36,477 nucleotides of DNA from an uncultured bacterium (lineage in GTDB: Bacteria; Bacillota; Clostridia; Lachnospirales; Lachnospiraceae), in contig CAMWUN010000034.1 in NCBI GenBank assembly GCA_947177425.1, positions 1 through 36,477 of the forward strand, written 5' to 3'. Of this stretch, positions 1 through 25,728 are shown piece by piece. The translations under genes were made by a program, and so were the position numbers. Each line of letters opens with the position of its first letter. Positions within the stretch are counted from its first letter, which is position 1. The notes under the pieces were generated by a model. The model did no database searches. It was given only the letters and a program-made list of their open reading frames with translations, and was not told where the DNA came from.

Positions 1-56
1 CGAAGGCAATTTTCGATGGATTTTTGCATGTTACTGGTCACGGAGTGAACAGTGAA
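1..56 (+). repeat. MITE-like intergenic repeat, copy A (right part only)
   Basis: The right half of the ~130-bp repeat family also found at 7221, 10134, 25475 and 36418. The stretch from the CGAAGGCAATTTTCGATGG segment to GGAGTGAACAGT is the same as the corresponding part of the 7221-7353 copy. Its last bases are GTGAACAGTGAA instead of the usual GTGAACAGTAAC, so this end has decayed. The left half lies outside the window. Confidence 0.85.
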
Positions 57-7083: not shown

Positions 7084-7212
7084 CAGGATAATCGGTGGGA
7101 GGTTTTCTGCTTTTTCACCGCACATGAACATTGACAGCAGTCTGCCAGGGACGTGCTGTCTTCCGACTGGCTTCCGTATCGTACTAAGTGATGTTGTAAG
7201 TGAACAGTAGCA
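7084..7212. other. Intergenic DNA with solitary repeat end
   Basis: Apart from GTGAACAGTAGC at 7200-7211, which is an exact inverse of the left end of the adjacent repeat (GCTACTGTTCAC, 7221-7232), I see no gene or recognisable site here. Confidence 0.6.
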
Positions 7213-7220
7213 ATGCCTCA

Positions 7221-7353
7221 GCTACTGTTCACACAGAACTGCGCATTTACTGCGCTGGTCGTAAGAAAATGATTCGAGAGTGCAAAAATCCCATTGCCGA
7301 AGGCAATTTTCGATGGATTTTTGCATGTTACTGGTCACGGAGTGAACAGCAAC
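7221..7353 (+). repeat. MITE-like intergenic repeat, copy B (complete, 133 bp)
   Basis: The ends are GCTACTGTTCAC and GTGAACAGCAAC, a 12-bp imperfect terminal inverted repeat. Inside are a GACC...GGTC hairpin around GCGCATTTACTGCGC, and GCAAAAATCC...GGATTTTTGC around ATTGCCGAAGGCAAT. The right end is itself a palindrome (GTTACTGGTCAC, GGA, then GTGAACAGCAAC). It is flanked by the exact 8-bp direct repeat ATGCCTCA at 7213-7220 and 7354-7361, as a transposition target duplication would be. Confidence 0.9.
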
Positions 7354-7393
7354 ATGCCTCATGAAACGACCCTGGATTGAAAACGGAATAAGG

Positions 7394-7422
7394 TTTACAC
7401 TTTTTATCTAATTTGCTATAAT
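7394..7422 (+). promoter_or_regulatory. Promoter of the 61-aa protein
   Basis: TTTACA (7394-7399), a 17-bp spacer and TATAAT (7417-7422) form a near-consensus sigma-A promoter. A TG two bases before the -10 adds an extended -10 element. Confidence 0.8.
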
Positions 7423-7466
7423 CATATTATAACAACTGATTAGTAGCTATAAAGGGCGGTGATATC

Positions 7467-7652
7467 ATGACAGAAAAAGAAATGATACAAAGAAACATTG
7501 AAGAATTTTCGCGGCTTCAAAAGTATATGATTTTAACGCCGGATAAAGAATCAGCAGCTTATAAAGAGATGTATGAAAGATATGTTGATTTAAAAGCAAT
7601 ACTTACTGTGTCCGGTGTTAATGTAGCAGAGCTTGACAGGGTAAAAGCATAA
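7467..7652 (+). CDS. Small hypothetical protein (61 aa)
   Basis: A small charged, probably helical protein (MTEKEMIQRNIEEFSRLQKY...) with no signal peptide or membrane segment. I recognise no family. It is convincingly a gene because it has its own near-consensus promoter (7394-7422), a GGGCGGTGA ribosome site and a strong terminator right after it (7676-7725). It is therefore a free-standing monocistronic unit. Function unknown. Confidence 0.75.
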   Translation: MTEKEMIQRNIEEFSRLQKYMILTPDKESAAYKEMYERYVDLKAILTVSGVNVAELDRVKA

Positions 7653-7675
7653 AAATAAATATTATGATATGGTCG

Positions 7676-7725
7676 AAGAGCGTAAATTTTATTGAGTTTT
7701 CCAATAAGATTTACGCTCTTTTTAT
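7676..7725 (+). terminator. Strong intrinsic terminator
   Basis: AAGAGCGTAAATTTTATTG (7676-7694) pairs with CAATAAGATTTACGCTCTT (7702-7720). It is a 19-bp stem with one G-U position and a 7-nt loop, followed by a T run. The AT-rich symmetric stem could work in both directions. Confidence 0.92.
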
Positions 7726-7759
7726 GTGTTCTAACGGTACATTGAAAGGTCAAGTTTTA

Positions 7760-7933
7760 GAACGTGTTTTAAAATTCATTGCCCCAATCTGCACGCCCAA
7801 CTTTGCGCGATATTTGTACCAAATTTAGTCAACGTAGTTCGCTGCGCCTCGTAAATCCGGCAGAGCATTCATGCTCTTAGTCTCCCATGAATTGTGACGC
7901 ACATCTTAAGGAAAGCAATTTTCAAACATGCTC
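7760..7933. repeat. Second MITE-like intergenic element (~174 bp)
   Basis: Its ends GAACGTGTTTTAAAATT (7760-7776) and AATTTTCAAACATGCTC (7917-7933) form an imperfect 17-bp inverted repeat. The interior is non-coding and has further small palindromes (GAGCATTCATGCTC at 7863-7876). The end sequence AGCATGTTTGAAAAT recurs at 3051-3065, suggesting a fragment of the same family there. No flanking duplication is evident. Confidence 0.5.
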
Positions 7934-7964
7934 CAGGAAACTCTGATAAGACAATTTCTGACAG

Positions 7965-7993
7965 TTGAAAAAGAACATAAGTTCTGATAAAAT
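7965..7993 (+). promoter_or_regulatory. SOS promoter with LexA box
   Basis: TTGAAA (7965-7970), a 17-bp spacer and TAAAAT (7988-7993) form the promoter. The spacer contains GAACATAAGTTC (7973-7984), an exact match to the Firmicutes LexA/DinR pattern GAAC-N4-GTTC. LexA bound here would sit between the -35 and -10 elements, so the downstream polymerase should be induced by DNA damage. Confidence 0.88.
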
Positions 7994-8031
7994 ATATCTG
8001 TAAGAAAGAAATTTTAAATGAGGCATCGGAT

Positions 8032-9561
8032 ATGTTACAGAAAAATCGTGTTTATGTTGCTATAGATTTGAAATCATTTTACGCTTCTGTGGAATGTGCG
8101 GAGCGGGGACTGGATCCGCTGACTACAAATCTTGTGGTGGCTGACGCTGCCCGTACAGAAAAGACTATCTGTCTGGCAGTGTCGCCGTCCCTGCGGGCCT
8201 GGGGGATACCGGGACGGGCAAGGCTGTTTGAAGTGGTCCAGAAAGTCAGGGAAATAAATGCCGGACGCCGTCTGCAGGCGCCGGGGCATGTTTTTGACGG
8301 TTCTTCCTATGATGACGGACAGTTGAGGGCATCTCCCGGGCTTTCTCTTTCCTATGTTACAGCCCCGCCCCGGATGGCTCTCTATATGGAATACAGTACG
8401 AAAATTTATAATATTTATCTGAAATATATAGCGCCTGAGGATATTCATGTTTATTCCATTGATGAAGTGTTTATGGATGTTACGGATTATCTGCATACTT
8501 ACAGGCTTGATGCCCGGGGACTGGCGAAGAAGATGATACAGGAAGTTTTGCAGGATACAGGAATCACAGCTACCGCCGGGATTGGTGATAATCTTTATCT
8601 GTGCAAGGTTGCACTGGATATTATGGCGAAGCATATTGCACCGGACGAGGACGGGGTGAGGATTGGGGAACTGGATGAAATTGCTTACCGGAGAATGCTC
8701 TGGACCCACCGTCCCCTTACGGACTTCTGGCGTGTTGGCAGAGGCTATGCCAGAAAGCTGGAAGAAAACGGGATTTTTACAATGGGAGACGTGGCAAGGT
8801 GCTCTCTGGGCAGGCCGGAGGATTTTTATAATGAAGAACTGCTTTACAGATTGTTTGGTATCAATGCGGAACTTCTGATAGACCATGCCTGGGGCTGGGA
8901 ACCCTGTACCATAAAGGAAGTGAAGGCATACAGGCCGGAAAACAGCAGTTTAGGTTCCGGGCAGGTGCTCCAGTGCCCTTACAGCTTTGAAAAGGGGAAA
9001 CTGATCGTGCGGGAAATGGCAGATTTACTGGCACTGGATTTGGTTGACAAAGGGCTTGTGGCTGACCAGGTTGTGCTGACCATTGGCTACGATATTGAAA
9101 ATCTGACGAATCCCGAAATCAGGAGGAAGTACAAGGGGCCTGTCACCACAGACCATTACGGGCGCAGGGTTCCTAAACATGCCCATGGCACAAGGAATCT
9201 GAATCAATATACTTCTTCCACCAAACTGATTCTGGATGCCGTTACAAAGCTTTATGAGGAAATCACAGACAAAAACCTGCTGGTCAGGAGAGTCAACGTT
9301 ACGGTAAACCATGTGATTGAAGAGAAAATGGCGGTAAAGGAAGAGGTTTTTGAACAGCTTGATCTGTTTACGGATTATGAAGCGCGGCAGAAAGAGAAGG
9401 AGGAGGAACATGCAGAAGCAGAGCGCGAGCGCAGACTGCAGATGGCAATGCTGGATATTAAGAAAAAGTATGGAAAAAATGCCATTCTTAAAGGCATGAA
9501 CCTTGAAGAAGGGGCAATGACAATGGAGCGGAACAGGCAGATTGGCGGCCATAAGGCGTAA
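8032..9561 (+). CDS. Y-family DNA polymerase (UmuC/UvrX-type)
   Basis: A 509-residue lesion-bypass polymerase. The catalytic carboxylates are visible: Asp12 in VAIDLKSFYASVE, and Asp144-Glu145 in YSIDEVFMD. An IMS-domain thumb with helix-hairpin-helix (KLEENGIFTMGDVA) and a little-finger region follow. The C-terminal ~60 residues are charged and coiled. It resembles the UvrX/YqjW group often carried next to a YolD-like gene rather than chromosomal DinB. Start ATG 8032 has GAGG 8 nt upstream and lies 38 bp after the LexA-controlled -10. Expected role: SOS-induced translesion synthesis and mutagenesis. Confidence 0.93.
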   Translation: MLQKNRVYVAIDLKSFYASVECAERGLDPLTTNLVVADAARTEKTICLAVSPSLRAWGIPGRARLFEVVQKVREINAGRRLQAPGHVFDGSSYDDGQLRASPGLSLSYVTAPPRMALYMEYSTKIYNIYLKYIAPEDIHVYSIDEVFMDVTDYLHTYRLDARGLAKKMIQEVLQDTGITATAGIGDNLYLCKVALDIMAKHIAPDEDGVRIGELDEIAYRRMLWTHRPLTDFWRVGRGYARKLEENGIFTMGDVARCSLGRPEDFYNEELLYRLFGINAELLIDHAWGWEPCTIKEVKAYRPENSSLGSGQVLQCPYSFEKGKLIVREMADLLALDLVDKGLVADQVVLTIGYDIENLTNPEIRRKYKGPVTTDHYGRRVPKHAHGTRNLNQYTSSTKLILDAVTKLYEEITDKNLLVRRVNVTVNHVIEEKMAVKEEVFEQLDLFTDYEARQKEKEEEHAEAERERRLQMAMLDIKKKYGKNAILKGMNLEEGAMTMERNRQIGGHKA

Positions 9562-9644
9562 AGTACAGAAATTTGTTTTTAAAGCGGTTCAGCCTTAGAG
9601 ACAGCACCTATGGACTTCCAGATGGCAATAATGAAGGAGAAAAA

Positions 9645-10067
9645 ATGACAAAAAAGAGCAGTAATGACAGACACCGCTATGAGGACATCATCCATCTGCC
9701 CCATCATGTATCCGGCGTCCATCCACAGATGACGCAGAGGGACAGGGCGGCCCAGTTTTCGCCTTTTGCAGCACTTACCGGATATGAAGACGCTCTTGAG
9801 GAAGCAGGACGCCATACCGGGGAAAGGATAGAACTGGACGAAGACGCTAAGAACATTCTGGATGAAAAACTTCGGATGATACAGGAACAGATAACAGTCC
9901 GTCCGCAGGTACAGATTACCTATTTCGTGCCTGATGAAAAGAAGACAGGCGGCGCTTATACTGTGGCGGAGGGCTGGGTGAAAAAGATAGACAGATATGG
10001 ACAGAATATCATAATGGATGACGGGAGGACAATTCCAGTTGGGGAGATTATAGAAATAAGAATATAA
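9645..10067 (+). CDS. YolD-like protein
   Basis: A 140-residue member of the YolD-like family. The N-terminal QRDRAAQFSPFAALTGYEDAL block and the C-terminal beta-rich half are typical. I place the start at 9645, where AAGGAG (9634-9639) precedes the ATG; the frame is open from 9573, but the extra residues overlap the spacer and lack similarity. It follows the Y-family polymerase gene by 83 bp, an arrangement conserved across Firmicutes (for example B. subtilis YqjW/YqjX), so a function together with the polymerase is likely though not biochemically defined. Confidence 0.9.
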   Translation: MTKKSSNDRHRYEDIIHLPHHVSGVHPQMTQRDRAAQFSPFAALTGYEDALEEAGRHTGERIELDEDAKNILDEKLRMIQEQITVRPQVQITYFVPDEKKTGGAYTVAEGWVKKIDRYGQNIIMDDGRTIPVGEIIEIRI

Positions 10068-10133
10068 TGCCTGCCAGAAATAAGCCTTTTTGCAAGGGGA
10101 TAAGGCTCTATGTTAAATTTGAAATATAAACTG

Positions 10134-10261
10134 GTTACTGTTCACACAGACCTGCGCATTTACTGCGCTGGTCGTAAGAAAGTGATTCGAGAATGCAAAA
10201 AAACATTGCGAAGGCAATTTTCGATGGATTTTTGCATGCTGCTGGCGGAGCGAACAGTAAC
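10134..10261 (+). repeat. MITE-like intergenic repeat, copy C (complete, 128 bp)
   Basis: The ends are GTTACTGTTCAC and GCGAACAGTAAC. It is flanked by the exact 8-bp direct repeat ATAAACTG at 10126-10133 and 10262-10269. It is slightly shorter than copy B because of small deletions in the right-hand palindrome (TGCTGCTGGCGGAGCGAAC). It lies between the YolD-like gene and the lipoprotein gene. Confidence 0.9.
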
Positions 10262-10321
10262 ATAAACTGGATTTTCAGGCATGATTGCGATTTCAGGCGG
10301 CTTTTTATTTTCTGACATATA

Positions 10322-10330
10322 TGATAAAAT
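10322..10330 (+). promoter_or_regulatory. Candidate extended -10 promoter of the lipoprotein gene
   Basis: TGATAAAAT (10322-10330) reads as an extended -10. The -35 position holds only a T-rich stretch. It is the best candidate in the 311-bp gap upstream of the lipoprotein and could drive the whole 10.4-23.8 kb run. Confidence 0.35.
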
Positions 10331-10378
10331 AGGAAATAAAAATTAAGGTAAGGGTTTGGGATAGGGAGGAATGTTAAG

Positions 10379-12433
10379 ATGATGGGTTCATGGATTCAAA
10401 AGCTGGGATTCGGCCTGCTGACTGGCCTTACGGTTACAGCGCTGCTGACAGGATGTGGAAAAAGCGCCAGTCCGAAAAGCTTTACAAAATTTGGCGAGGA
10501 GAAAGAAGCAGAGCCGGAGGCAGAAGAGAAGGAAGAAGGCAAAGACAGTTCAGACGATGACGAAGACGACGGTTTTCCTTATCTGAAAAAGCAGAAAATT
10601 GTGGATTATAACAATAAGGAAGCAAAATACGAAATCTTTATGCCAAAGGGAACGGATGTAAATGACGGGTTTGGCTCCTACTATGAGCATGGAATTGATT
10701 ATACAGTCACGGTCAACTCAACACAGGGCTATGATTCTTTTGAGCATTTTTTTCAGATCAATCAGGAATACTGGCCTGACCCGGATACGGATTACATAGA
10801 TATTTACAGCACAGGAATAATGGAAAACGGGGATGACAGATATTTTATTCTGACAGGGAAGGGAACCAATTACGAAGGCACAGCGTTTGTGATAAAGGTT
10901 CTTGAATATATGGAAGTGGAGCCCTCCGGGGACTGCATTAACTGGAGTCTTGAGATGTATCCCGAACATGCAGATGAAGATACGGATCTTGTGATTGCCG
11001 ATATGGAAAAATGCTATGGCATTGATATGGGGCTGTTAAAAGGAGACAGTCAGTTAAAAACAGACACCCATGACCAGGACGAATATGTGCCGGGGGAAGG
11101 ACAGGCTGTGCTGAATGACTTGGAGGGATACCAGTATTTAGGGGCAGTGGAACTGTCGGATTATTACGGGGAAGGCGTCTGTCCGGTAATGATGCCCAAA
11201 GGATATCACACAAATGTGGAAAAGTCCCATGTCTACTCCTTCATGCACGGTATCTGGGCAACGGCTGACGTGGAAGAATTTTATAATGATAATGTTCTGA
11301 TGACTGAATTGAAAAGTATTGTAGACAACAAGTATGAATCAAGATTCGGAAATACGGAAAGAATAAGGAATGTCTGGCGCAGTGCCATGATGCCTGTGCC
11401 TGGCTTTGACAATGCATTTTACACGGTGATTTCTTATGAGAAAAAGGGATATGATACGGAAGAATACTTTCCCAAAGCGGAGGTCCTCTGTTATATCCAG
11501 TATGATGCAGAACACTATATTGCCCTAGAGATTTTCCTCTCCGGCGACAAATATGACGATTCCAGCAACAAGGTAATACGGGAATTTGAGACAGCCTATG
11601 GAATGGATTTGTCAAAATATTATAGAGAGGGGGAAAATGAGGGGGATACGGATAGTCTGGATTCCGGAGAGGGAGAACCGGTTATTCTGGCGGAACTGAT
11701 AAGTAGTGAAATAAGCGGAAATGAAAGTGAAGCATGGACAGCAGGCGGCAGTGAAGAAGCGCTTCCCGATACCGTCCTCTGGTTCAATGCCACCTATGCG
11801 CCCCTTATTTACAGCAATGGATGGGACTGGAAGCTGGTAGGAGGCATTAAGCCCACCCAGGAAAATATAGAAATAATGGATTACCTGTTAAAGCAGAGCT
11901 GGGGCGTAAGCGACAGGGAATCAGCACTGGAAAGCGTGGAGAATTTAAAGGAAAAAGGCCATAGGAACATCTGTCGGAAATGCATGGAGGAACTGGAAGA
12001 ACTGGGGCTTTTGGATTTGGATGAAAAAGAATTTAAAAAAGCATTTCTGAAATCCGGCCTGACAGACAAGGCATACCGGTATGTAATTGCCTATCAGATG
12101 TATCAGTCCGGCCTGGACGCGGATGCCATGGCCGCCTGGGATTTGTGCAGGGTAAACCAGTTATATGCATCCTACTATATCTGTGGATATATGACCTATG
12201 AGGAAGCCATGGATGCATCCCTTGAAAATTCCCTGGTACTGCAGGAGATGTACGCTTCCTGGGATGAGATGATGGACGGCTATGTGCTGGGATACCAGTT
12301 CTGGCAGGGGGATCCGGATACAAAGGAGGACTCCCCCACGAAAGAACGGCGCCGCATGTATGAAATGATGCTGCAGATGGAGGATAACCCATATCTGCTG
12401 GATTGGGATATGGAACTGGAGAAAAGCTGGTAG
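10379..12433 (+). CDS. Lipoprotein with C-terminal DUF1266 domain
   Basis: The 684-residue protein starts with a lipoprotein signal peptide ending in the lipobox LLTGC (Cys26). A very acidic linker follows (residues ~37-66, runs of E and D), then a long extracellular region of unknown fold. The C-terminal ~130 residues match the DUF1266 pattern: AWDLCRVNQLYASYYICGY, then YEEAMDASLENSLVLQ, then a Y-x-SWDE-M segment and GYVLGYQFW. DUF1266 has no known biochemical function. The ribosome site AGGGAGGAA lies about 9 nt before the ATG pair at 10379/10382. Only 62 bp without a clear terminator separate it from the bile salt hydrolase, so co-transcription is possible. Confidence 0.82.
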   Translation: MMGSWIQKLGFGLLTGLTVTALLTGCGKSASPKSFTKFGEEKEAEPEAEEKEEGKDSSDDDEDDGFPYLKKQKIVDYNNKEAKYEIFMPKGTDVNDGFGSYYEHGIDYTVTVNSTQGYDSFEHFFQINQEYWPDPDTDYIDIYSTGIMENGDDRYFILTGKGTNYEGTAFVIKVLEYMEVEPSGDCINWSLEMYPEHADEDTDLVIADMEKCYGIDMGLLKGDSQLKTDTHDQDEYVPGEGQAVLNDLEGYQYLGAVELSDYYGEGVCPVMMPKGYHTNVEKSHVYSFMHGIWATADVEEFYNDNVLMTELKSIVDNKYESRFGNTERIRNVWRSAMMPVPGFDNAFYTVISYEKKGYDTEEYFPKAEVLCYIQYDAEHYIALEIFLSGDKYDDSSNKVIREFETAYGMDLSKYYREGENEGDTDSLDSGEGEPVILAELISSEISGNESEAWTAGGSEEALPDTVLWFNATYAPLIYSNGWDWKLVGGIKPTQENIEIMDYLLKQSWGVSDRESALESVENLKEKGHRNICRKCMEELEELGLLDLDEKEFKKAFLKSGLTDKAYRYVIAYQMYQSGLDADAMAAWDLCRVNQLYASYYICGYMTYEEAMDASLENSLVLQEMYASWDEMMDGYVLGYQFWQGDPDTKEDSPTKERRRMYEMMLQMEDNPYLLDWDMELEKSW

Positions 12434-12495
12434 AAAACTGCAAAATCTACCCATATGGGCAGGACAGAACACCATGAAAATAGAGGAGACAGATT

Positions 12496-13470
12496 ATGTG
12501 TACAGCAGTAACATATAAGACGAAAGATTTTTACTTTGGACGTACGCTGGATTATGATTTTTCTTATGGAGAGGAAATTGCGGTGACACCCCGTAATTTT
12601 GTTTTCCGTTACAGTTTCATGGGCGCCATGACCAACCATTATGCAATGATTGGCATAGCGCATATAGAAGAGGATTATCCCCTGTATTATGACGCGGTCA
12701 ATGAAAAAGGGCTGGGAATGGCAGGGCTAAATTTTGTGGGAAATGCGGACTATAAGAAAGATATACCGGGCAGGGATAATGTGGCTGTCTTTGAGTTCAT
12801 TCCCTGGATTTTAAGCCAGTGCGCCACTGTAGGAGAAGCAAAGGAACTGCTTGGGAAAATAAATCTGACAGACAGGGATTTTAACGAAAAACTTCCGACG
12901 GCGCAGCTCCACTGGCTGATTGCGGACCGTACAGAAGCCATTACAGTGGAATCCGTGAAGGAAGGCGTCATGGTCTATGATAATCCGGCAGGAGTGCTTG
13001 CCAACAACCCCACTTTTCGGGAGCAGATGTTTCAGCTAAACAACTATATGCATTTATCTCCCAAGTCTCCGCAAAACCATTTTTCAGATAAGCTGCCTTT
13101 ATCTGTTTACGGCAGGGGGATGGGTACTATTGGACTTCCAGGAGATTTGTCTTCCCAGTCCCGTTTTGTTAGAGCAGCTTTCGTAAAGATGAATGCAGTA
13201 TCAAGCGACTCGGAAAATGAGAGTGTCAGCCAGCTTTTTCATATACTCGGTTCGGTGGACCAGCAGAGAGGATGCTGCGAAGTGGAGAACGGAAAGTATG
13301 AATATACGATTTACACTTCATGCTGTAATGGAGACAAAGGAATTTACTATTATACTACTTATGATAACCACCAGATTACAGCAGTAGATATGCATAAGGA
13401 AAATCTGGATGGCGGCCAACTGATAAGATACCCGCTCATCCAGGGCGAACAGATTAAAAGACAGAATTAA
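12496..13470 (+). CDS. Bile salt hydrolase / choloylglycine hydrolase family
   Basis: A 324-residue Ntn-hydrolase of the choloylglycine hydrolase family, which cleaves glycine or taurine from conjugated bile acids (relatives act on penicillin V or acyl-homoserine lactones). Key residues are in place: Cys2, which becomes the N-terminal nucleophile after Met removal; Arg16 and Asp19 in GRTLDYD; Asn79 in GLNF; Asn170/171 in GVLANNPTF; and Arg223 in LPGDLSSQSRF. There is no signal peptide, so it is cytoplasmic. The selectivity loop reads VYGRGMGTIG, with Gly where many lactobacillar enzymes have Ser before Arg. GAGGAG precedes the start. It lies 18 bp upstream of the MoxR gene and probably shares its transcript. 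Confidence 0.9.
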   Translation: MCTAVTYKTKDFYFGRTLDYDFSYGEEIAVTPRNFVFRYSFMGAMTNHYAMIGIAHIEEDYPLYYDAVNEKGLGMAGLNFVGNADYKKDIPGRDNVAVFEFIPWILSQCATVGEAKELLGKINLTDRDFNEKLPTAQLHWLIADRTEAITVESVKEGVMVYDNPAGVLANNPTFREQMFQLNNYMHLSPKSPQNHFSDKLPLSVYGRGMGTIGLPGDLSSQSRFVRAAFVKMNAVSSDSENESVSQLFHILGSVDQQRGCCEVENGKYEYTIYTSCCNGDKGIYYYTTYDNHQITAVDMHKENLDGGQLIRYPLIQGEQIKRQN

Positions 13471-13488
13471 AGCGGAACAGGAGGAAAT

Positions 13489-14598
13489 ATGCAGGAGAGT
13501 ATAAAGCCGCCGGTGGAGGTGCGGTACAAGGAAGAACTGGAGGCGTTGAAAGCCACGGACACGGGAAACAGGCCCGCAAACTGGCAGATGTCGCCGAAAG
13601 CAGTCAGGACTTTTATATTAGGAAGTCCCAGGCCGATCATTTATGAGGGAAAGGAATACCGGATTGAGAAGAAGTATTTTGGCAATGATGCGTTGATAGA
13701 GCGGTGTATCATCACGCTGGCGGGAAACCGGGGGCTGATGCTGGTAGGAGAGCCGGGGACGGCGAAAACCATGCTTTCGGAACTGCTGTCAGCGGCCATC
13801 AGCGGCGTCAGCACCAACACGATCCAGGGAACCGCAGGCACCACAGAGGATATGATTAAGTATTCATGGAATTATGCGCTTTTGCTTGCCAAAGGGCCCA
13901 GCCGGGAGGCACTGGTTCCGTCGCCGCTTTATGTGGGGATGGAAAAGGGGATTTTGACGAGATTTGAGGAAATCACCAGAACACCTGCGGAAATTCAGGA
14001 CAGTCTGATTAGTGTTTTAAGCGATAAAGTGCTGAATGTGCCGGAATTGGGAGATGAAGGGCTTTTGTTTGCCTGCCAGGGCTTCAATGTGATTGGTACA
14101 GCCAATACGAGGGACAAAGGGGTCAATGAAATGAGCAGCGCATTGAAAAGGCGGTTCAATTTTGAGACCGTGACCCCGGTCAGGGAGGCGGCTCTGGAAA
14201 AACAGATTATTATAAACGAGGTGGATAAACTTGCGAAGGAAAGCGGTATCCGCATGGAGCCGGATGAGGACGTGGCGGAACTTCTTGCCTCTACATACCA
14301 TGAACTGCGGGAAGGAATTTCCTCCTACGGACACAGAATCGACAAGCCGGCAGCAGTCATGAGCACAGCAGAAGCCGTATCGGTTTATTATCAGACCATG
14401 CTGACAGGTTATTATTATAAAGAGGGCCGCATGGATGTGGATTGTCTTGTGCAGAATCTGGTGGGCGCTATATCCAAAGAAAATAAAGAAGATCTGGAGA
14501 AAGTAAAGGGATATTTCAATACCGTTATTAAGGATAAAAGCGGCAAAGAGGGTGGATTATGGAAACAATATTACGAAGCGAGGAAATGGCTGAAATAA
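13489..14598 (+). CDS. MoxR-family AAA+ ATPase (YehL-like)
   Basis: A 369-residue AAA+ protein. Walker A is GEPGTAKT (residues 87-94). The Walker B position reads GILTRFEEITRTP (~154-166), with Glu-Glu where most MoxR proteins have Asp-Glu. Sensor 1 is VIGTANTRD (Asn206) and the arginine finger is in LKRRF (~219-223). MoxR ATPases typically act as chaperones or metal/cofactor insertion factors together with a VWA-domain protein, and one is encoded two genes downstream. Order and lengths match E. coli YehL and its neighbours. AGGAGG precedes the start; the stop lies inside the next gene (40-bp overlap). Confidence 0.93.
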   Translation: MQESIKPPVEVRYKEELEALKATDTGNRPANWQMSPKAVRTFILGSPRPIIYEGKEYRIEKKYFGNDALIERCIITLAGNRGLMLVGEPGTAKTMLSELLSAAISGVSTNTIQGTAGTTEDMIKYSWNYALLLAKGPSREALVPSPLYVGMEKGILTRFEEITRTPAEIQDSLISVLSDKVLNVPELGDEGLLFACQGFNVIGTANTRDKGVNEMSSALKRRFNFETVTPVREAALEKQIIINEVDKLAKESGIRMEPDEDVAELLASTYHELREGISSYGHRIDKPAAVMSTAEAVSVYYQTMLTGYYYKEGRMDVDCLVQNLVGAISKENKEDLEKVKGYFNTVIKDKSGKEGGLWKQYYEARKWLK

Positions 14599-16988: not shown

Positions 16989-17018
16989 TGAAGCCAGAGA
17001 AAGAACAGAGGAATCAAC

Positions 17019-18146: not shown

Positions 18147-18153
18147 GGAAAGT

Positions 18154-19899
18154 ATGGGTGACTGGAAAGCATGGCTGGCGGATGTGGATGATGATTATCT
18201 GACGGGGATTGCCAATAAAGGCATTGTAAAGCGGGCTTATAAGGATAAGGAAGAAGGCAATTATCAGGTTTTGTCCCTTGATGAGGAGGCGGAAGTAAGC
18301 ATCGGGGAGGAAAAAGTGGTAATTAAAATGCCCCTTGGGGAGAGCAGATGTTCCTGTCCCTCCAGAAGCATCTGCCGTCATGTGATACTTGGGATACTGG
18401 CGTTGAAAGAAAAGGCAGGGGCGTCCGGGCAGGAGCAGACGGAATGCGGGCAGATAACGACGATGCAGGACTTATGTCAGGAAACCCAGACGCAGGGCAG
18501 GGAAAATGTTCTGGCATCAAAGCTTATGGAGGAAATTGGGAATTTTCCTGATGCATCTGTCCAAAAGGTATTGGGAAGCAGGCAATTACAGGGGATTCTG
18601 GAGCAGAAAAAGGCATCGCAGGTTCCCCTGATTACTTATTCCAGTGTAATTACCGTGGAACTGGCAGGGATGGGACAGACAGTAAAGCTTTTATCCCCTC
18701 TGGAACATTCTTCCTGTACCTGTCACAAGAAGGATTTCTGTATCCATAAGGCAGTAGCCATCTTATGGTGCAAGCTGGAAAAAGGACTGGTCAGAGCGGA
18801 GAATCTGGAAGGGGAGGATTTGGGGGAGCCTCCCTTTGACAGGGTGCAGATAAAGGAGACAGCCCTGCAGATGAAAAACTTTTTGGAGGAACTAATACAT
18901 ACAGGGCTTGCAAGGGTTTCGCCGGATATACTGGATCAGATGGAGCGGTTTGCCACTATCAGCCACAATGTCCGGCTGGCTGAGTTTGAGGGATATTTCC
19001 GGGCTTTACAGGACTCTTACAGGAATTATTTCGATAGAAAGGCATCTTTCCGTACGCAGACTCTTATGGAACAGTTTTCCAGACTGTACCGGAGGGTGGA
19101 ACTTCTGCTGGATGCAGAGAGTGACGGGGAGATTGCAGAACTGGCCGGAGAGTTTAAGGCAGAGTACCTTCCGGCTGGAACACTGGATTTGACTGGAATT
19201 GCCATAGAGCACTTTGAAAGCCAGACTGGATACGAAGGGGAAACGGTGTACTTTTTGGAAGAAAATACAAAAGAGTGGTATACCTATACTTGGGCAAGGC
19301 CGGTTTTTTACGAAGATGCCAAAAGGCGCGGGCGGCAGGAGAAGGCAAAAGCGCCCTGGGGAATTCCCCTTTCGCTGGAAGGAATGGCGCAGGCACGCAT
19401 GAAGCTGACAGGGGCAAGGTGCGACTGCAGAAGGAGACTTTCCTCCAGCCAGGAAACGAAGGGGGAGCTGATTGAAAGCAGGGGGAAGGAAAAAAGCCTG
19501 CATGTGAAAGAGTTGGGCGGCTGGTATTACCGGGATTTTGGGAAGCTTTTTACAGAAAGGATAGGCAGCAGGAAGGCTTCATGGCTGAAAAAACAGGAAG
19601 ATGACAAAAGGGGGATGGAACTGGTATTCCTGCGCCCCGCATCCTTCCAGAAGGCGGTTTTTTCGGAAACAGAGCAGAAGCTTTATATGAGTCTGTATGA
19701 TGAAAATGGGAAGGAAATTGTCATAGAGACCCCTTATTCTAAAAAGGAAGCCTGGGGCATCCGGTATCTGGAGCGGATAAAGGAGGAAAGCAGACCCTGC
19801 TTTTTAGGTAAAATATATCTGCTGGACGGGAGAATCCGTATGTATCCGGTAGCTGTATTTGAGAAGGGAGAGGTGCTGGAAGATGGGAACGGTAAGTAA
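18154..19899 (+). CDS. SWIM zinc-finger protein with two SWIM motifs (YehQ-like)
   Basis: A 581-residue protein with two SWIM-type motifs of identical spacing C-x-C-x5-C-x-H. The first is at Cys66/68/74 and His76 (SRCSCPSRSICRH), the second at about Cys188/190/196 and His198 (SSCTCHKKDFCIH). SWIM domains bind DNA or proteins. I start at the ATG at 18154, which has GGAGG (18138-18142) about 11 nt upstream; the frame extends to a TTG at 18133 inside the VWA gene. The C-terminal part is rich in basic and aromatic residues with no family I recognise. The next gene starts 17 bp before this one stops. Confidence 0.88.
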   Translation: MGDWKAWLADVDDDYLTGIANKGIVKRAYKDKEEGNYQVLSLDEEAEVSIGEEKVVIKMPLGESRCSCPSRSICRHVILGILALKEKAGASGQEQTECGQITTMQDLCQETQTQGRENVLASKLMEEIGNFPDASVQKVLGSRQLQGILEQKKASQVPLITYSSVITVELAGMGQTVKLLSPLEHSSCTCHKKDFCIHKAVAILWCKLEKGLVRAENLEGEDLGEPPFDRVQIKETALQMKNFLEELIHTGLARVSPDILDQMERFATISHNVRLAEFEGYFRALQDSYRNYFDRKASFRTQTLMEQFSRLYRRVELLLDAESDGEIAELAGEFKAEYLPAGTLDLTGIAIEHFESQTGYEGETVYFLEENTKEWYTYTWARPVFYEDAKRRGRQEKAKAPWGIPLSLEGMAQARMKLTGARCDCRRRLSSSQETKGELIESRGKEKSLHVKELGGWYYRDFGKLFTERIGSRKASWLKKQEDDKRGMELVFLRPASFQKAVFSETEQKLYMSLYDENGKEIVIETPYSKKEAWGIRYLERIKEESRPCFLGKIYLLDGRIRMYPVAVFEKGEVLEDGNGK

Positions 19900-20257
19900 G
19901 GAGGAAGTCCTTAAGGAGTTTCTGGAAGAGGCGGGGGGACTGCTGGAGGAATTATATCAGAGCGGTTTTGATACGGTTCACGACAGCACGTTAGAAGCCT
20001 TGGGAGGAATGGGAAAGCTGGCCGGAGAGTATGGTATGGGGTATTTGTCCATGCTGCTGGGGCAGTTGACCGGAGGACTTGCCATGGGGCGCCATCAGAT
20101 GAAGCAGAAAAAAGACGGCATCACAGAAATTTATGTAAAGCTTAATGAATATTTATACTTATGCAGGGAAAAAACAGCCTGTGATACAGGAAAAAATTAT
20201 TACATTGACGGGGAGGAAAAACAGTATGATGAATCCAAGGGACATGTACAGCCGTAA
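19883..20257 (+). CDS. Small hypothetical protein in the MoxR cluster (124 aa)
   Basis: It is not a family I recognise. The protein is mostly helical: an acidic N-terminal helix (EEVLKEFLEEAGGLLEELYQ), a glycine-rich amphipathic centre (GGMGKLAGEYGMGYLSMLLG) and a polar C-terminus. The start at 19883 overlaps the SWIM gene by 17 bp and the stop overlaps the DUF4132 gene by 32 bp. That pattern of double overlap argues it is a genuine, translationally coupled component. The E. coli yeh set has, to my knowledge, no obvious counterpart. It could be an adaptor or small regulatory subunit. Confidence 0.72.
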   Translation: MGTVSKEEVLKEFLEEAGGLLEELYQSGFDTVHDSTLEALGGMGKLAGEYGMGYLSMLLGQLTGGLAMGRHQMKQKKDGITEIYVKLNEYLYLCREKTACDTGKNYYIDGEEKQYDESKGHVQP

Positions 20258-23200
20258 GCTGATTGAGGTAATTGAACAGATTAACCTGCCAAAAGATAAA
20301 ATGGCTCTTGCAGAGGATTATCTGATGAAGGAAGCCGGGGATGAGATATTGGAGCATTTTGAATTTCAGGATTTGTCAAAAATCCCGGAAGAAAAGTCCG
20401 TAAAAATGTTCCATGAATTAAGCAGGAAGGGACGGAAAGAGGAGGCTGGACGACTTTTCAGGCTGCTCTTTGCCATAGGCTGGTCAACCTGCTATCACAT
20501 GACGCCATTAGGCAGTCTCTATCCGGGTAAAGAAGCCCTGATTGAGGAGACTGACAAGCTGGCGGCGGTCTACGCGCCGGAGATTGGGATGCAGCAGCAC
20601 ATGCAAAGCGGTCAGACAATAAACCGTCTGATAAAATTGGTCAATGGGGATGCGGAAAAGATAAAAAAGGCAGTTGGATACCAGAAAAATAGGTTTGATA
20701 ATGGGAAGCTGGTTCTGCTTGCAGTCTACTTTATGATGAAATACGGCAGCCAGGAAGAAAGCGGCAAAAAGCCGGAGGGAATTTTAGGAAATATCGGTAA
20801 ACTTTTCGGCGGCAGAGACAGAGCCGGGACAGCGGTACCGATAGAGAAGGAAGATATGCCGTTGATGGAGCAGTATGAAGAAATCATTATATCCAGCTTT
20901 GGCAATCTATATAAAAATCAGATAGATCCGCAGACCCTTTCAAAGATACAGAAAGCAGTGCGTGATAATCTGATGACGGAAAAAGTATTGCGGCTGGCCA
21001 ATGAGGCCGGGCATGTGGACGCCTTTTTGCTGAAACTGTTAGGAGGCATGGCTTATCTGAACTTCCGGCTTTCCGCCACACTGAAAAACGTTGTAAAGCT
21101 ATGTCTGGCGGCCAGTACAGAGACGACGCTGGATGCTGTCCGTTATGTGAGTAAGGGGCTTTTGACGGATATTGGCATAGTGGGAGGAAATTTTGACCAG
21201 GTGTTTGGAATCGACAGCGGACGGTATCTGTGCTGGGCGGCCAATAAAAATCTTGAAAAAATTTTAAAGAAGCAGTTGGAAAGCAACCAGCCCTGCTATT
21301 TGAAAGTGATGAATGAGACGGATACGGAAACGGCTGGCAGGATGATTGAGGTGCTGAAAGCATCTGATCCGGAGCTTTGTGAAAGCATTCTGGCAAAAAG
21401 AAGCGGCCCGGACCGGGAAAAGCTGATGGGAGTCCTGATAGGAAAAGATTACGCAAACGCAGACCTGATAAAGGGATACTTAAGGGGGGAGACGAAAGTG
21501 GATGCCCTGTATCCCTATGCTGACCAGATTGCGCAGAAGAATACCTATTCAGGATGGCAGGAGCGCAGAAGTGTAAATGAATACAGGAAGCACTATCAGG
21601 ATGAAGTTTTTTACCGTAGATGTCAGGTATATATGCTGATGAAACATTACATATACTTTTTCCAGGACGATATGATGCAGGGGGCTGAGTTAAGTAAGCG
21701 GCAGATAGAGGAAATTTTCAGGAATTTTGACAGGGAAGGTCTTACTATTGACCGCCAGCTTTCCGGTTTTGCGCTGTTTTATGATTTCCTTTATGGGGAA
21801 AGGCGCAAACAGGATTTTACAGACATTGTGGAAAAGTGCTTTGACGGATATCTGTCAGAACGCAGGGAGGAAACGCTCAGCGCCTTTTCCGGGGCGGAAG
21901 CAACAGGACGCCTCCTGGGGCTCCGTGTCATGGGAAAAAATGCACGGGAAAATAAGAAGGAAATCCTTGCCTACACCCAGGATGGCTCTAAGGCAGTGAA
22001 AGAAGAACTCCTGCATATTCTCTGCCAGCAGAGGGAGTGGGAGGAAGAAGTGACAACTCTTTTGGCATCCAAAAAGGCGGCAGAGCGGGAACTTGCTATC
22101 AAGACCCTTCTTAGCTGGCAGGAGCAGGGGAAGGATTATCAGGAACTGTTCAGGCAGGCTCTTGAAAAGGAGAAAAACAACAAGATAAGGGAACTTTTAA
22201 GCAATGCCCTTCAGATAGAGCCGGAAAAGGGCAGCGGCGCCAAAGCCCTGGCGCAGGGGGATTTGGTAAAGGAACTGCATAAGGGCGGCAAAAAGCGTTC
22301 CCTTGCATGGGCTTACGAGACGCCTTTTTCAGAGGTACACAGGTTAAACGGGGAACCAGCCCATGAAGAATACCTTCAGGCAGTTCTTTTGTGCTATGCC
22401 TCCGCTGGCAGGTGCGGAATCAGTCAGAATGCCGCCATTCTGGCACAGGATTTAAATCAGGAAGAATTGGCTGTTTACATGAACGAACTTTTTGACAAAT
22501 GGCTGGAAGCAGGGGCGGAAGCGAAAAAACGCTGGGTACTCTACGCATCGTCCATACATGGCGGCCCGGAGATTATCAGGAAACTCCAGCACCAGATTCA
22601 GGAATGGCCCCAGCACGCAAGAGGCGCCATTGCATCGGATGCAGTCTGGGCGTTGAGTTTAAATCCCCTGCCCCAGGCGCTTTTGATTGTGGACGGCATT
22701 GCCCGGAAATTCAAATTCAAACAGGTGAAGGCGGCCGCAGGAAAGGCGCTGGAATTTGCCGCCGAACAGCTTGGCATCACCAGTGAAGAACTGGCAGACA
22801 GAATTGTTCCTGACCTGGGATTTGATGAAAACGTGGAGAGAAGCTTTGATTATGGTGGGCGTGCCTTTAAGGTCACAATTACCCCGGAACTTGAGATAGA
22901 GATTTTTGATGAAACGGGAAAGAAGCTGAAAAATATGCCTGCCCCCGGCAAGCGGGATGATGAGCAGAAAGCCAAAGCTTCCTATGAGGAATTTAAGCAG
23001 ATGAAAAAGCAGATGAAGATGACCGTCACAAGTCAGAAGATGCGTCTGGAGCAGGCTTTGTCTACAGGAAGGGAATGGAATGTGGATGCATGGAAAAACC
23101 TTTTTGTGAAAAATCCTGTGATGCATCAGTTTGCCATTGGCTTGATCTGGGGAATCTATGAAAACAAGAGACTGGTTCAAAGCTTCCGCTATATGGAGGA

Positions 23201-23798
23201 CGGCTCTTTTAACACCCAGGACGAGGAGGAGTATGAACTTCCGGCAGAAGGAAAAATAGGTCTGGTGCATCCCATTGAACTGGATGAAGAGGGGAAAAAA
23301 GCATGGCAGGAACAGCTTGAGGATTATGAAATCACCCAGCCTGTGGAACAGATAAAGCGTTCTGTATACCGTATTACAAAGGAAGAGGAAAACAGCCAGA
23401 GCCTGGAACGTTTCGGGGGCTGTATCATAAATGATTTGTCATTGGGGGGAAAACTCCTGGGGGCCGGCTGGTACCGGGGGTCTGTGATTGACGGCGGCGG
23501 TTTTGACACCTATTACAGAGAAGATACAGAAACCGGCCTTGGAGTGGAACTTCATTTCTCGGGAAGCTATGTGGGAGGCGAAAACGAAGAGGTCACTGTC
23601 TATGACGCAAGATTCTATAAGGCGGGCGATGTGAAAAGGGGCAGCTATGTTTATGATGAAGCGGATAAGGAAAAAGCATGTTTCCTAAAAGATATTCCAC
23701 CCAGGTATTTCAGCGAAGCGGTTTTGCAGCTTACGAAAGCAACGGCCTCTGCCAAAGAGAGAAATGAGAATTGGAGGGACAATTTTACAAACAGATAA
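20226..23798 (+). CDS. DUF4132 protein (YehI/MolR-like)
   Basis: A 1190-residue protein. A long alpha-helical, HEAT-like middle (for example ELAIKTLLSWQEQGKDYQEL around residue 630) leads into a DUF4132-type C-terminal third with W-K-NLFVKNPVMHQFAIGLIWG, FRYMEDGSF and IGLVHPIELDEE. The C-terminus carries two glycine-rich strands (LLGAGWYRGSVIDGGGFD and VELHFSGSYVGG). I start at 20226, where GGGGAGG precedes the ATG; the open frame from 20145 lies inside the small upstream gene. E. coli YehI is of similar size and neighbours the same set of genes. It is cytoplasmic. Function is unknown; the old link to molybdate regulation is weak. Confidence 0.87.
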   Translation: MMNPRDMYSRKLIEVIEQINLPKDKMALAEDYLMKEAGDEILEHFEFQDLSKIPEEKSVKMFHELSRKGRKEEAGRLFRLLFAIGWSTCYHMTPLGSLYPGKEALIEETDKLAAVYAPEIGMQQHMQSGQTINRLIKLVNGDAEKIKKAVGYQKNRFDNGKLVLLAVYFMMKYGSQEESGKKPEGILGNIGKLFGGRDRAGTAVPIEKEDMPLMEQYEEIIISSFGNLYKNQIDPQTLSKIQKAVRDNLMTEKVLRLANEAGHVDAFLLKLLGGMAYLNFRLSATLKNVVKLCLAASTETTLDAVRYVSKGLLTDIGIVGGNFDQVFGIDSGRYLCWAANKNLEKILKKQLESNQPCYLKVMNETDTETAGRMIEVLKASDPELCESILAKRSGPDREKLMGVLIGKDYANADLIKGYLRGETKVDALYPYADQIAQKNTYSGWQERRSVNEYRKHYQDEVFYRRCQVYMLMKHYIYFFQDDMMQGAELSKRQIEEIFRNFDREGLTIDRQLSGFALFYDFLYGERRKQDFTDIVEKCFDGYLSERREETLSAFSGAEATGRLLGLRVMGKNARENKKEILAYTQDGSKAVKEELLHILCQQREWEEEVTTLLASKKAAERELAIKTLLSWQEQGKDYQELFRQALEKEKNNKIRELLSNALQIEPEKGSGAKALAQGDLVKELHKGGKKRSLAWAYETPFSEVHRLNGEPAHEEYLQAVLLCYASAGRCGISQNAAILAQDLNQEELAVYMNELFDKWLEAGAEAKKRWVLYASSIHGGPEIIRKLQHQIQEWPQHARGAIASDAVWALSLNPLPQALLIVDGIARKFKFKQVKAAAGKALEFAAEQLGITSEELADRIVPDLGFDENVERSFDYGGRAFKVTITPELEIEIFDETGKKLKNMPAPGKRDDEQKAKASYEEFKQMKKQMKMTVTSQKMRLEQALSTGREWNVDAWKNLFVKNPVMHQFAIGLIWGIYENKRLVQSFRYMEDGSFNTQDEEEYELPAEGKIGLVHPIELDEEGKKAWQEQLEDYEITQPVEQIKRSVYRITKEEENSQSLERFGGCIINDLSLGGKLLGAGWYRGSVIDGGGFDTYYREDTETGLGVELHFSGSYVGGENEEVTVYDARFYKAGDVKRGSYVYDEADKEKACFLKDIPPRYFSEAVLQLTKATASAKERNENWRDNFTNR

Positions 23799-23837
23799 TA
23801 TACTATTATAAGATATCATAAAGGAGACTTTCTGAAT

Positions 23838-24386
23838 ATGCAGGAAAGAGTAAATCCTTTAACCAATGACTGCAGCTTTTCCGGTGTGAAACCCATTATG
23901 GCAGACTTACCATACCCGCCAATTCAGGTGAAGGAGAGGAATCTGATGTATGCCAATATGCTCAGCGTTGATTACTGCGGCGCTGTGTCGGAATTATCGG
24001 CAATCACACAGTACATCAACAATGAAAACCGTCTGTCCTGCCATCATTGTTCCATGGCAAAAACCCTTCTGGGAATTGGGATAGCGGAAATGATGCATCT
24101 GCAGAAATTAGGCGAACTGATTTTTCTGTTGGGGGGCACCATTGATTTTACTGCAAAATACCGCAATGGAAGGCCGAAAATGTGGACGCCGGAGTATCTT
24201 TCGATTCCGGAAAATACAATGCATATGCTGGCGGCCGATATAGAGGCCGAACAGGATGCAATCCGGCAGTATGAGGCCCATATCAGCGCAATCAATGATG
24301 AATTTGTCAATGCAGTGCTGAAAAGAATCATTGCAGATGAGGAATACCATATCATGCTGCTTCAATACTTAATGGGAGAATTATAA
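23838..24386 (+). CDS. Ferritin-like diiron-type protein
   Basis: A 182-residue four-helix-bundle protein. Metal-ligand-like motifs recur: SELSAITQY (~53-61), IAEMMHLQ (~81-88), EAEQDAIRQYEAH (~138-150) and ADEEYHIMLLQ (~167-177). This E-x-x-H pattern is typical of ferritin-like/rubrerythrin-type proteins. Four cysteines occur (Cys13, Cys49, Cys66 and Cys69), the last two as CHHCS between helices, which is unusual and could bind a metal. AAGGAG lies about 12 nt before the start. It follows the DUF4132 gene by 39 bp with no terminator, so it may be the last gene of that transcript. Likely role: iron or peroxide handling. Confidence 0.82.
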   Translation: MQERVNPLTNDCSFSGVKPIMADLPYPPIQVKERNLMYANMLSVDYCGAVSELSAITQYINNENRLSCHHCSMAKTLLGIGIAEMMHLQKLGELIFLLGGTIDFTAKYRNGRPKMWTPEYLSIPENTMHMLAADIEAEQDAIRQYEAHISAINDEFVNAVLKRIIADEEYHIMLLQYLMGEL

Positions 24387-24510
24387 AATTATCCCTGTGC
24401 ATGTATACGATTGGTTACGAGAACAGGCCGGTTTGAGACATTTTCATTAAGAAAATAAGGAAACATTACGATAGATAAAATGAAAAGGTCTTGAAACGGA
24501 GGGAAATTTT

Positions 24511-25155
24511 ATGAATATACCATTATTTGGCACAGGTAGCAGCTCCAATGGAATCTTTGCCGGGAATCTGTCCATGATGCAGGGGAACAGGCTGAAAAGT
24601 ACTCAGGAAAAGGAACAGCGGCAGCAGAAGACGGCCGGGCAGATAGAGTTCTGGGAACAGCAGAAAGCCAACCTTAAAAATATAGAGAGTGATACGTTAG
24701 AGGAAATTGCCCGGAAACTGGAAATGTTCCATAATTATGACGATGAAATTGCGGCGGCAAAGGCAGCTTATAATAATGAGCAGATGTTCCACATTCTGGA
24801 CGAAGCCAGAGAGCAGGGCGAAAAGATTGCCGAAGCTGTGGAGAAGACCGAACCCAAGACTCCCGAAGAGAGGAAAGAGGAACTTGTGGAGGAAGCACTT
24901 GGAACCGACGAGGAGAAAGGTGTTTTATCGGAAGTTATGGATGAAATTCTGGAAGAGGTCACGGAAATCGTGGAAGAAATCGGCGAAAACGCGGAAACCC
25001 TGACCCAGGAAATGCAGGAGGAATTTACAGATAAGATGGCGGAAAATGCGGAGGAGATGGCGGCCCTGACAGAGAGAGGGCAGGCTCTCTCAGAACAGGA
25101 ACTTGCCGGAATAAAAGCGGAGATGATATATAAGAGGTTTGATATCCGTATCTGA
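24511..25155 (+). CDS. Hypothetical coiled-coil protein (214 aa)
   Basis: It is strongly acidic, Glu/Lys/Ala/Gln-rich and almost entirely helical. After a Gly/Ser-rich N-terminal segment (FGTGSSSNG) come long heptad-like helices (residues ~30-110 and 125-200). No cysteines, signal peptide or membrane segments are seen. CGGAGGGA precedes the ATG, so translation is likely. I do not recognise a family. The stop lies directly against the transposase remnant at 25175. Confidence 0.7.
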   Translation: MNIPLFGTGSSSNGIFAGNLSMMQGNRLKSTQEKEQRQQKTAGQIEFWEQQKANLKNIESDTLEEIARKLEMFHNYDDEIAAAKAAYNNEQMFHILDEAREQGEKIAEAVEKTEPKTPEERKEELVEEALGTDEEKGVLSEVMDEILEEVTEIVEEIGENAETLTQEMQEEFTDKMAENAEEMAALTERGQALSEQELAGIKAEMIYKRFDIRI

Positions 25156-25174
25156 CCTTTCTCTGGCAATGGTA

Positions 25175-25397
25175 TGTTGATTTCTTCCGCACAGGATTCG
25201 TTTTCGGGAAGGTTTGTTATGATGTTCTCATATGTGCCGTTGCCGGTGGGGAAACGCAGGACACGAAAGGATATTTCATATTCTGCATATCCTTCATTCT
25301 GGAAATAGTCGAAAGCCACCTTTTTGCAGATGTGCCGGTACTGGTCTTCTGATTCGGGATGCAGGTATTTCTTTTTCGCATGGGCTGGATGACTGCG
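25175..25397 (-). pseudogene. IS4-type transposase fragment
   Basis: Read on the minus strand, about 74 codons encode a recognisable internal piece of an IS4-like DDE transposase. It contains KKYLHPESEDQYRHICKK, FDYFQNEGYAEYEISFRVLR and NGTYENIITNLPENE. In intact relatives this is followed by the region with the catalytic Glu (..LRWGIETSFRELK..), which is missing here. A stop (TGA at 25400-25398) closes the frame upstream and there is no start codon or remaining catalytic Asp. It is a decayed insertion-sequence relic next to repeat copy D. Confidence 0.8.
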
Positions 25398-25474
25398 TCA
25401 GTATAGACCCTATTCAGGAACTAACTCGGCAGCTTAACTAACTGACATTGGGAGTGAACAGTAACCACTGTTAC

Positions 25475-25607
25475 GTTACTGCTCACTCCGTGACCAGTAA
25501 CATGCAAAAATCCATCGAAAATTGCCTTCGGCAATGGGATTTTTGCACTCTTGAATCATTTTCTTACGACCAGCGCAGTAAATGCGCAGGTCTGTGTGAA
25601 CAGTAAC
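25475..25607 (-). repeat. MITE-like intergenic repeat, copy D (complete, inverted, 133 bp)
   Basis: In reverse orientation it matches copy B almost throughout. On the + strand it begins GTTACTGCTCAC and ends GTGAACAGTAAC. It is flanked by the exact 8-bp direct repeat ACTGTTAC (25467-25474 and 25608-25615). A further solitary end, GTGAACAGTAAC, lies at 25454-25465, one base before the left duplication. Confidence 0.9.
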
Positions 25608-25634
25608 ACTGTTACAATAAAAGTGCCATCCATG

Positions 25635-25674: not shown

Positions 25675-25728
25675 AGCATTTGACGAACATTGGAAATTAA
25701 ATAGAGATTGTCATTGTTTCCCTAATCT

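What the first reader, a model, noticed from the sequence alone, without database searches (positions are those of the whole stretch)
7213..25615. An ~130-bp MITE family with perfect 8-bp target duplications
All three complete copies (7221-7353, 10134-10261, 25475-25607) share 12-bp inverted ends of the form GTTACTGTTCAC and are flanked by different but exact 8-bp direct repeats: ATGCCTCA, ATAAACTG and ACTGTTAC. That is direct evidence for transposition rather than conserved regulation. The inside is non-coding and almost wholly palindromic, so RNA copies would fold strongly. A parent element making 8-bp duplications (for example IS66, IS256, ISL3 or IS1595 type) must exist or have existed. 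I know of no named family with these ends.
Basis: seen in the sequence. Interest (0 to 1): 0.8.

Follow-up and report, generated by a model that had tools for sequence, protein, structure and literature searches.

The report
Hairpin MITE family, 8-bp target duplications
A gut bacterium carries many copies of a 133-base non-coding jumping element that folds into hairpins and leaves an 8-base footprint; related elements of the same shape occur in many related bacteria, but the enzyme that moves them was not found.

Summary
The three complete copies, their 12-bp inverted ends and their exact, differing 8-bp duplications are in the window. Genome-wide, 22 of 39 complete copies examined have an exact 8-bp duplication and 25 of 39 have at most one mismatch; of 1482 mismatched flank pairings 2 are exact. 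This is a non-autonomous transposon (MITE) family of a Parablautia-genus Lachnospiraceae genome, with matches in 38 of 299 family genomes, own genome included.

In 800 kb of one relative, all 18 exact-duplication copies of the large class are 133 bp although three subfamilies differ inside. (2) Reduced forms of 27-63 bp carry the same 8-bp duplications. (3) An IS4-family insertion sequence uses the MITE end as target (12 of 17 ends).

The mover is unknown: IS66, IS256, ISL3 and IS1595 were tested and either are undetected in the richest relative or have other ends. No base-exact empty site was obtained. New variant of a known kind.

The parts
7221..7353 (+). complete MITE copy 1 (133 bp)
7213..7220 (.). 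8-bp target duplication ATGCCTCA, left of copy 1
7354..7361 (.). 8-bp target duplication ATGCCTCA, right of copy 1
7236..7260 (+). internal stem-loop 1 of copy 1; covaries across genera
7280..7326 (+). internal long stem-loop 2 of copy 1; covaries across genera
7327..7353 (+). right-end hairpin of copy 1 (27 bp: inner GTTACTGGTCAC, GGA, outer end); the part left over in solo forms and the part that the IS4-type element enters
10134..10261 (+). complete MITE copy 2 (128 bp)
10126..10133 (.). 8-bp target duplication ATAAACTG, left of copy 2
10262..10269 (.). 8-bp target duplication ATAAACTG, right of copy 2
25475..25607 (-). complete MITE copy 3 (133 bp, reverse orientation)
25467..25474 (.). 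8-bp target duplication ACTGTTAC, left of copy 3
25608..25615 (.). 8-bp target duplication ACTGTTAC, right of copy 3
1..56 (+). right part of a fourth copy, cut by the start of the contig
7200..7211 (-). isolated MITE end fragment, 9 bp from copy 1
25451..25465 (-). MITE terminal fragment (15 bp) cut by an IS4-type element, 9 bp from copy 3
25179..25450 (-). remnant of an IS4-type insertion sequence; its end (CAATGTCAGTTAGTTAAG) at 25433-25450 abuts the MITE fragment; 83% identical over 69 aa to the transposase in L323

Best explanation
The copies belong to a MITE family: short non-coding DNA transposons without a gene of their own, moved in trans by a transposase that recognises the 12-bp ends and cuts the target with an 8-bp stagger. 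Shown: inverted ends, 8-bp duplications at many different sites, many near-identical copies, the same architecture in other genera. Inferred: that a DDE-type transposase supplied in trans does it, and that this enzyme is (or was) encoded elsewhere in the host. Also inferred: the conserved internal stem-loops help mobility or make insertions tolerable, and the 27-31 bp solo hairpins are remnants left when the left end and its inner copy (GTTACTG...) recombine or slip.
For: 22 of 39 own copies have exact 8-bp duplications, 25 of 39 at most 1 mismatch; mismatched pairings 2 of 1482 exact; of lengths 4-12, 8 bp gives 22 copies and no other length more than 1. 138 exact 12-mer ends vs 1 in the control. 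Copies are on average 97.2% identical to their consensus and 34 of 39 are exactly 133 bp. 41 elements with 8-bp duplications (0-1 mismatch) from 19 other genome handles plus one named contig (at least two rows are evident chance matches). In 800 kb of G222: 18 elements of 133 bp and 7 of 27-63 bp with exact duplications, one 11.2-kb pair that I take for chance, control motif 2 pairs. Mostly intergenic: 25 of 29 own loci have no ORF of 100 aa or more across the joined flanks.
Against: 14 of 39 own copies have 2 or more mismatches in the duplication. The terminal 12 bases vary more between own copies (0.045, 0.064 per column) than the interior (0.028), the reverse of what pure end-selection predicts. 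No autonomous parent was found. No base-exact empty site was obtained. Four own loci do have an ORF across the joined flanks.
Confidence: 0.9

Rival explanations
1. The IS4-type element (ends CAATGTCATTWAGTTAAG) is the mover: a form bounded by MITE ends is the parent, and the MITE is its deletion derivative.
For: In L320 (G067, intact 461-aa transposase ORF) and L340 (G099) the IS is bounded on both sides by inverted MITE-type ends, has no direct duplication of its own, and the 8-mers outside agree at 7 of 8 bases (AAAATTCG/AAAATTTG, AAATTTTT/AAATTTTA).
Against: Both 8-mer pairs are AT-rich and imperfect. L318, L319, L321 and L323 show the IS simply inserted in a MITE-type end with its own 9-10 bp direct duplication; L322 has such a duplication at a site without a MITE end. 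L317 and L329 have MITE ends on both sides and no duplication. Presence of IS and MITE is not associated over 298 genomes (9 of 37 vs 39 of 261, Fisher p = 0.15). G222, with 207 ends, is not among the 48 genomes matched, and its 800 kb hold one end-like match.
Confidence: 0.1
2. The element is a regulatory or processing RNA hairpin spread by recombination, and the 8-bp repeats are incidental.
For: Strong folding (z -3.0 to -8.1), covarying internal stems, mostly intergenic places.
Against: Site-specific 8-bp duplications far above mismatched pairings. No Rfam family at gathering score; with lax thresholds only two animal or plant microRNA families well under their cut-offs.
Confidence: 0.04
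3. It is a MITE, and the stem covariation is mutational, not selected: arms of quasi-palindromes correct each other by template switching.
For: Quasi-palindrome correction is an established mutational process (recalled). It would also act on the right-end hairpin.
Against: Length stays at 133 bp across three subfamilies with different stems in one genome, and the linker GTAMGAAAA between the stems is shared. The right-end hairpin, equally exposed, shows less covariation (3 of 12 pairs, not above shuffles on that count).
Confidence: 0.35
4. The 27-63 bp forms are not remnants but themselves mobile minimal units.
For: Solo hairpins: 4 exact and 7 one-mismatch duplications of 36 candidates, against 0 and 1 of 1260 mismatched pairings. 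Two 61-bp forms with similar junctions at different exact-duplication sites in G222.
Against: They are what a deletion between the left end and its inner copy would leave, the hairpin arms differ from copy to copy, and 27-30 bp is short for a paired transposase complex (general knowledge). At least one of the 7 one-mismatch cases (L131) looks like a chance hairpin.
Confidence: 0.12

Closest known systems
Bacterial MITEs in general (review PMC10969869: listing and a term search only)
   Same: Small, non-coding, inverted ends, target duplications, many copies, no own transposase
   Different: Named parent not found; conserved multi-stem interior with covariation; solo-hairpin remnants with duplications. 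The review has no occurrence of 'Clostrid', 'Firmicutes', 'Lachnospiraceae', 'IS66', 'IS4' or '8 bp'
IS66 family
   Same: 8-bp duplication; ends begin GTAA, as in the second MITE end type GTAACTGTTCAG
   Different: In Lachnospiraceae the ends are GTAAGCGTCAAATC-like (15 of 46 loci) or GTAAACGGTAAAA (own genome), not GTTACTGTTCAC/GTAACTGTTCAG
REP / GTAG- and CGTC-tagged palindromes (PMC3733652, listing only), ERIC-type elements (recalled)
   Same: Short extragenic palindromes, hairpins, entered by insertion sequences
   Different: These copies have exact 8-bp duplications and 12-bp inverted ends
ISRm22 (IS4Sa subgroup) inserting in REP sequences (PMC1525189 abstract; PMC2266710 passages)
   Same: An IS4-family element with strong preference for a hairpin repeat; direct repeats of 8-10 bp in the IS4Sa subgroup
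   Different: Here the target is a MITE end in Lachnospiraceae

Membership tests
MITE | short, non-coding, terminal inverted repeats | tested here: met
   34 of 39 copies 133 bp
MITE | target-site duplications of fixed length at differing sites | tested here: met
   22 of 39 exact, only at 8 bp
MITE | multiple dispersed copies | tested here: met
MITE | autonomous element with the same ends | tested here: not met
   not found in the parts examined; an autonomous parent is customary but not required, as it can be lost
MITE | sites without the element in relatives | tested here: inconclusive
   29 of 29 relative loci lack it but none aligns on both sides of the site
IS66-derived | ends shared with an IS66 element | tested here: not met
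IS256-derived | ends shared with an IS256 element | tested here: not met
   30 loci, no pair of ends; the own-genome copy L183 has one end-like match (GTTACTGTTCAG) 179 bp before the transposase match and no partner
ISL3-derived | ISL3 transposase with these ends | tested here: not met
   2 of 16 genomes have the family; no such ends in the 3 loci
IS1595-derived | IS1595 transposase in MITE-rich genomes | tested here: not met
   1 of 16 genomes; the ends of that one locus (L347) were not examined
IS6, IS1, IS21, IS982, ISAs1-derived | transposase with these ends | not tested
IS4 (IS4Sa-like) derived | ends shared and 8-bp duplication outside | tested here: inconclusive
   L320 and L340 yes with 7 of 8 bases, L317 and L329 no
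known structured RNA | Rfam match at gathering score | tested here: not met

The most novel reading that the evidence does not exclude
The folded shape is part of the mobility signal: an unknown enzyme, not of the classical 8-bp-duplication families, recognises the stem-loops (as single-stranded or cruciform DNA, or through an RNA) together with the ends. Selection for that shape keeps the length at 133 bp and the stems paired while their sequences change, and even the 27-30 bp end hairpin can be carried.
Probability: 0.17. Interest if true: 0.78.

Novelty: new variant of a known kind. Interest (0 to 1): 0.47.

Why it matters
A high-copy, recently active element shapes intergenic DNA in gut Lachnospiraceae (207 exact ends in one relative of about 3.3 Mb) and breaks draft assemblies, since many contigs end inside it. 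Its covarying interior makes testable whether MITE interiors are selected for shape. It also gives a three-layer system: unknown mover, MITE, and an insertion sequence that lives in the MITE.

Tried and rejected
Parent search. (a) Exact-end pairs in the own genome: the first 100 of 138 places showed one facing pair 2.4 kb apart (C4); it holds ordinary genes, no transposase was seen among its ORFs and the flanking 8-mers differ. (b) All loci held (293 loci, 1.49 Mb), pairs 250-9000 bp apart with an exact 8-bp duplication: one poor match. (c) 800 kb of G222: no long element except an 11.2-kb pair with bad ends. (d) IS66, IS256, ISL3, IS1595. (e) The smallest contigs of the own genome, C123-C142: no parent; three of the 20 came as N.

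Wider spread: plasmids no match; viral contigs no match to an 18-base pattern; phages 7 records, all unannotated human-faecal contigs. Three of those 7 were inspected and two carry a 133-bp relative with an exact 8-bp duplication, but whether they are phage DNA is not established.

Literature: 78 of the held library gave nothing naming this element; the 12-mer itself occurs in 0 papers.

Empty sites: joined flanks of copies 1 and 2 against relatives aligned on one side only.

For the covariation count 7 of 23 aligned rows of A1 were dropped before A2, because their central stems were misaligned; the structure was taken from one window copy, which favours it over slid versions.

Full report
What is there. 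The three copies, ends and exact 8-bp duplications are as described. Two further fragments of ends lie 9 bp from copies 1 and 3, and the contig begins inside a fourth copy.

Genome-wide test. The window is contig 34 of a 4.19-Mb draft of 142 contigs. One copy as query gave 44 matches, with only 40 of 222 candidates scored, so this is a lower bound. The exact 12-mer occurs 138 times, its reversed control once. Among 39 complete copies in the stretches I had fetched, 22 have an exact 8-bp duplication, 3 have one mismatch and 14 have two or more. Of 1482 pairings of left and right flanks from different copies 2 are exact, both consistent with copies of one tandem array. Exact duplications of 4 and 9 bp occur once each and of the other lengths between 4 and 12 not at all. 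Some of the 14 fit other explanations: L006 has a 9-bp duplication and L002 a shifted 6-bp one. The 22 exact duplications show no evident base preference.

Age and place. Own copies are on average 97.2% identical to the consensus and 94.6% to each other; 34 of 39 are 133 bp. Contrary to simple expectation the terminal 12 bases vary more than the interior. In 25 of 29 loci no ORF of at least 100 aa runs across the joined flanks; in 4 one does. Tandem copies with an 8-bp spacer occur on C64 (three, the last cut by the contig end) and C45 (two, the last cut), and with 9 bp on C115.

Relatives. 38 of 299 family genomes match, own genome included. A same-genus genome of 20 contigs (G300) has no more ends than the control, while G222 has 207 and G276 171. 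Two end types occur, GTTACTGTTCAC and GTAACTGTTCAG; mixed types are rare in the listed places (capped list). Elements with 8-bp duplications (0-1 mismatch) were found in 19 other genome handles (41 rows outside the own genome, at least two of them chance). In 800 kb of G222, exact duplications flank 18 elements of 133 bp belonging to three subfamilies with different stems, seven small forms (27, 30, 30, 50, 61, 61, 63 bp) and one 11.2-kb pair with poor ends; the reversed motif gave 2 pairs.

Structure. The element reads: end, stem-loop 1, linker, long stem-loop 2, right-end hairpin. On 16 sequences from the own and 12 other genomes, 17 of 27 internal pairs are changed on both sides, 91.8% of cells pair, and shifted versions pair in 30-40%. 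The helix of the two ends pairs in 93% with 3 of 12 pairs changed on both sides; the right-end hairpin pairs in 77% with 3 of 12, not above shuffles on that count. Seven of 23 aligned sequences were left out because their stems were misaligned. Selection for shape is one reading; correction between hairpin arms is the rival that these data cannot exclude.

Solo hairpins. Of 36 candidates without a partner end nearby, 4 have exact and 7 one-mismatch 8-bp duplications; of 1260 mismatched pairings none is exact and 1 has one mismatch. Several of the other candidates are visibly parts of larger elements. The solo is what remains if the left end recombines with its inner copy in the right-end hairpin; that is inference.

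The insertion sequence in the MITE. An IS with ends CAATGTCATTAAGTTTAGC stands at 17 contig ends of the own genome. 9 of the 17 abut the MITE's terminal 15 bases, 3 the inner side of the same point, 3 only a GTTCAC-like core, 2 nothing similar (no shuffled control was run). Relatives encode a DDE_Tnp_1 transposase and make 9-10 bp duplications in MITE-type ends in L318, L319, L321 and L323; L322 has such a duplication elsewhere. Tblastn hits on plasmids, at under 60% identity, are annotated as IS4-like IS1675 in most listed rows. Published precedent: IS4Sa-subgroup ISRm22 enters REP sequences (PMC1525189, abstract; PMC2266710, passages). A remnant of such an IS lies at 25179-25450 in the window, 83% identical over 69 aa to the one in L323. 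In L320 and L340 the IS is bounded by MITE ends on both sides with outer 8-mers agreeing at 7 of 8 bases; in L317 and L329 MITE ends are present without duplication. The two kinds of element are not associated across genomes (p = 0.15).

The mover. G222, with many exact-duplication copies, has no match for IS66, IS256, ISL3 or IS1595 transposases nor for the IS4-type query. IS66 elements elsewhere in the family have other ends, though they share GTAA with the second MITE end type. So the mover is either another family (IS6, IS1, IS21, IS982 and ISAs1 were not tested), an enzyme not of a classical kind, or lost. Only about a quarter of G222 was read.

Verdict. A true MITE family with a widespread superfamily around it; ordinary in kind, unusual in its conserved folded interior and its solo remnants, and without a known mover.

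Noticed in passing
window 25718-25892 and 26125-27942: glmS ribozyme (Rfam RF00234, 82 bits) ahead of a glmS-like ORF; MITE copy 3 ends 110 bp upstream of the ribozyme.
   Followed up: no
L332, L339, L342, L345 and others: More distant IS4-type relatives stand next to other repeated motifs such as GGGGACGGGG, so this IS group may often choose repeat palindromes.
   Followed up: no
L294, L295, L296: Tandem MITE arrays with an 8-bp (C64, C45) or 9-bp (C115) spacer at contig ends.
   Followed up: partly
L368, L369 (MT837311.1, MT836459.1): 133-bp relatives with exact 8-bp duplications in unverified faecal contigs labelled as bacteriophage.
   Followed up: partly
L145 137-1180 (own genome C127): Short (1044-bp) IS66-type element with ends GTAAACGGTAAAA and 8-bp duplication CTTTTATC.
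   Followed up: no
L308, L312, L090 5807: A second MITE subfamily in the own genome (GTTACTGTTCACACAGACCTGCGCATTCCGTGAG...), not analysed further.
   Followed up: no
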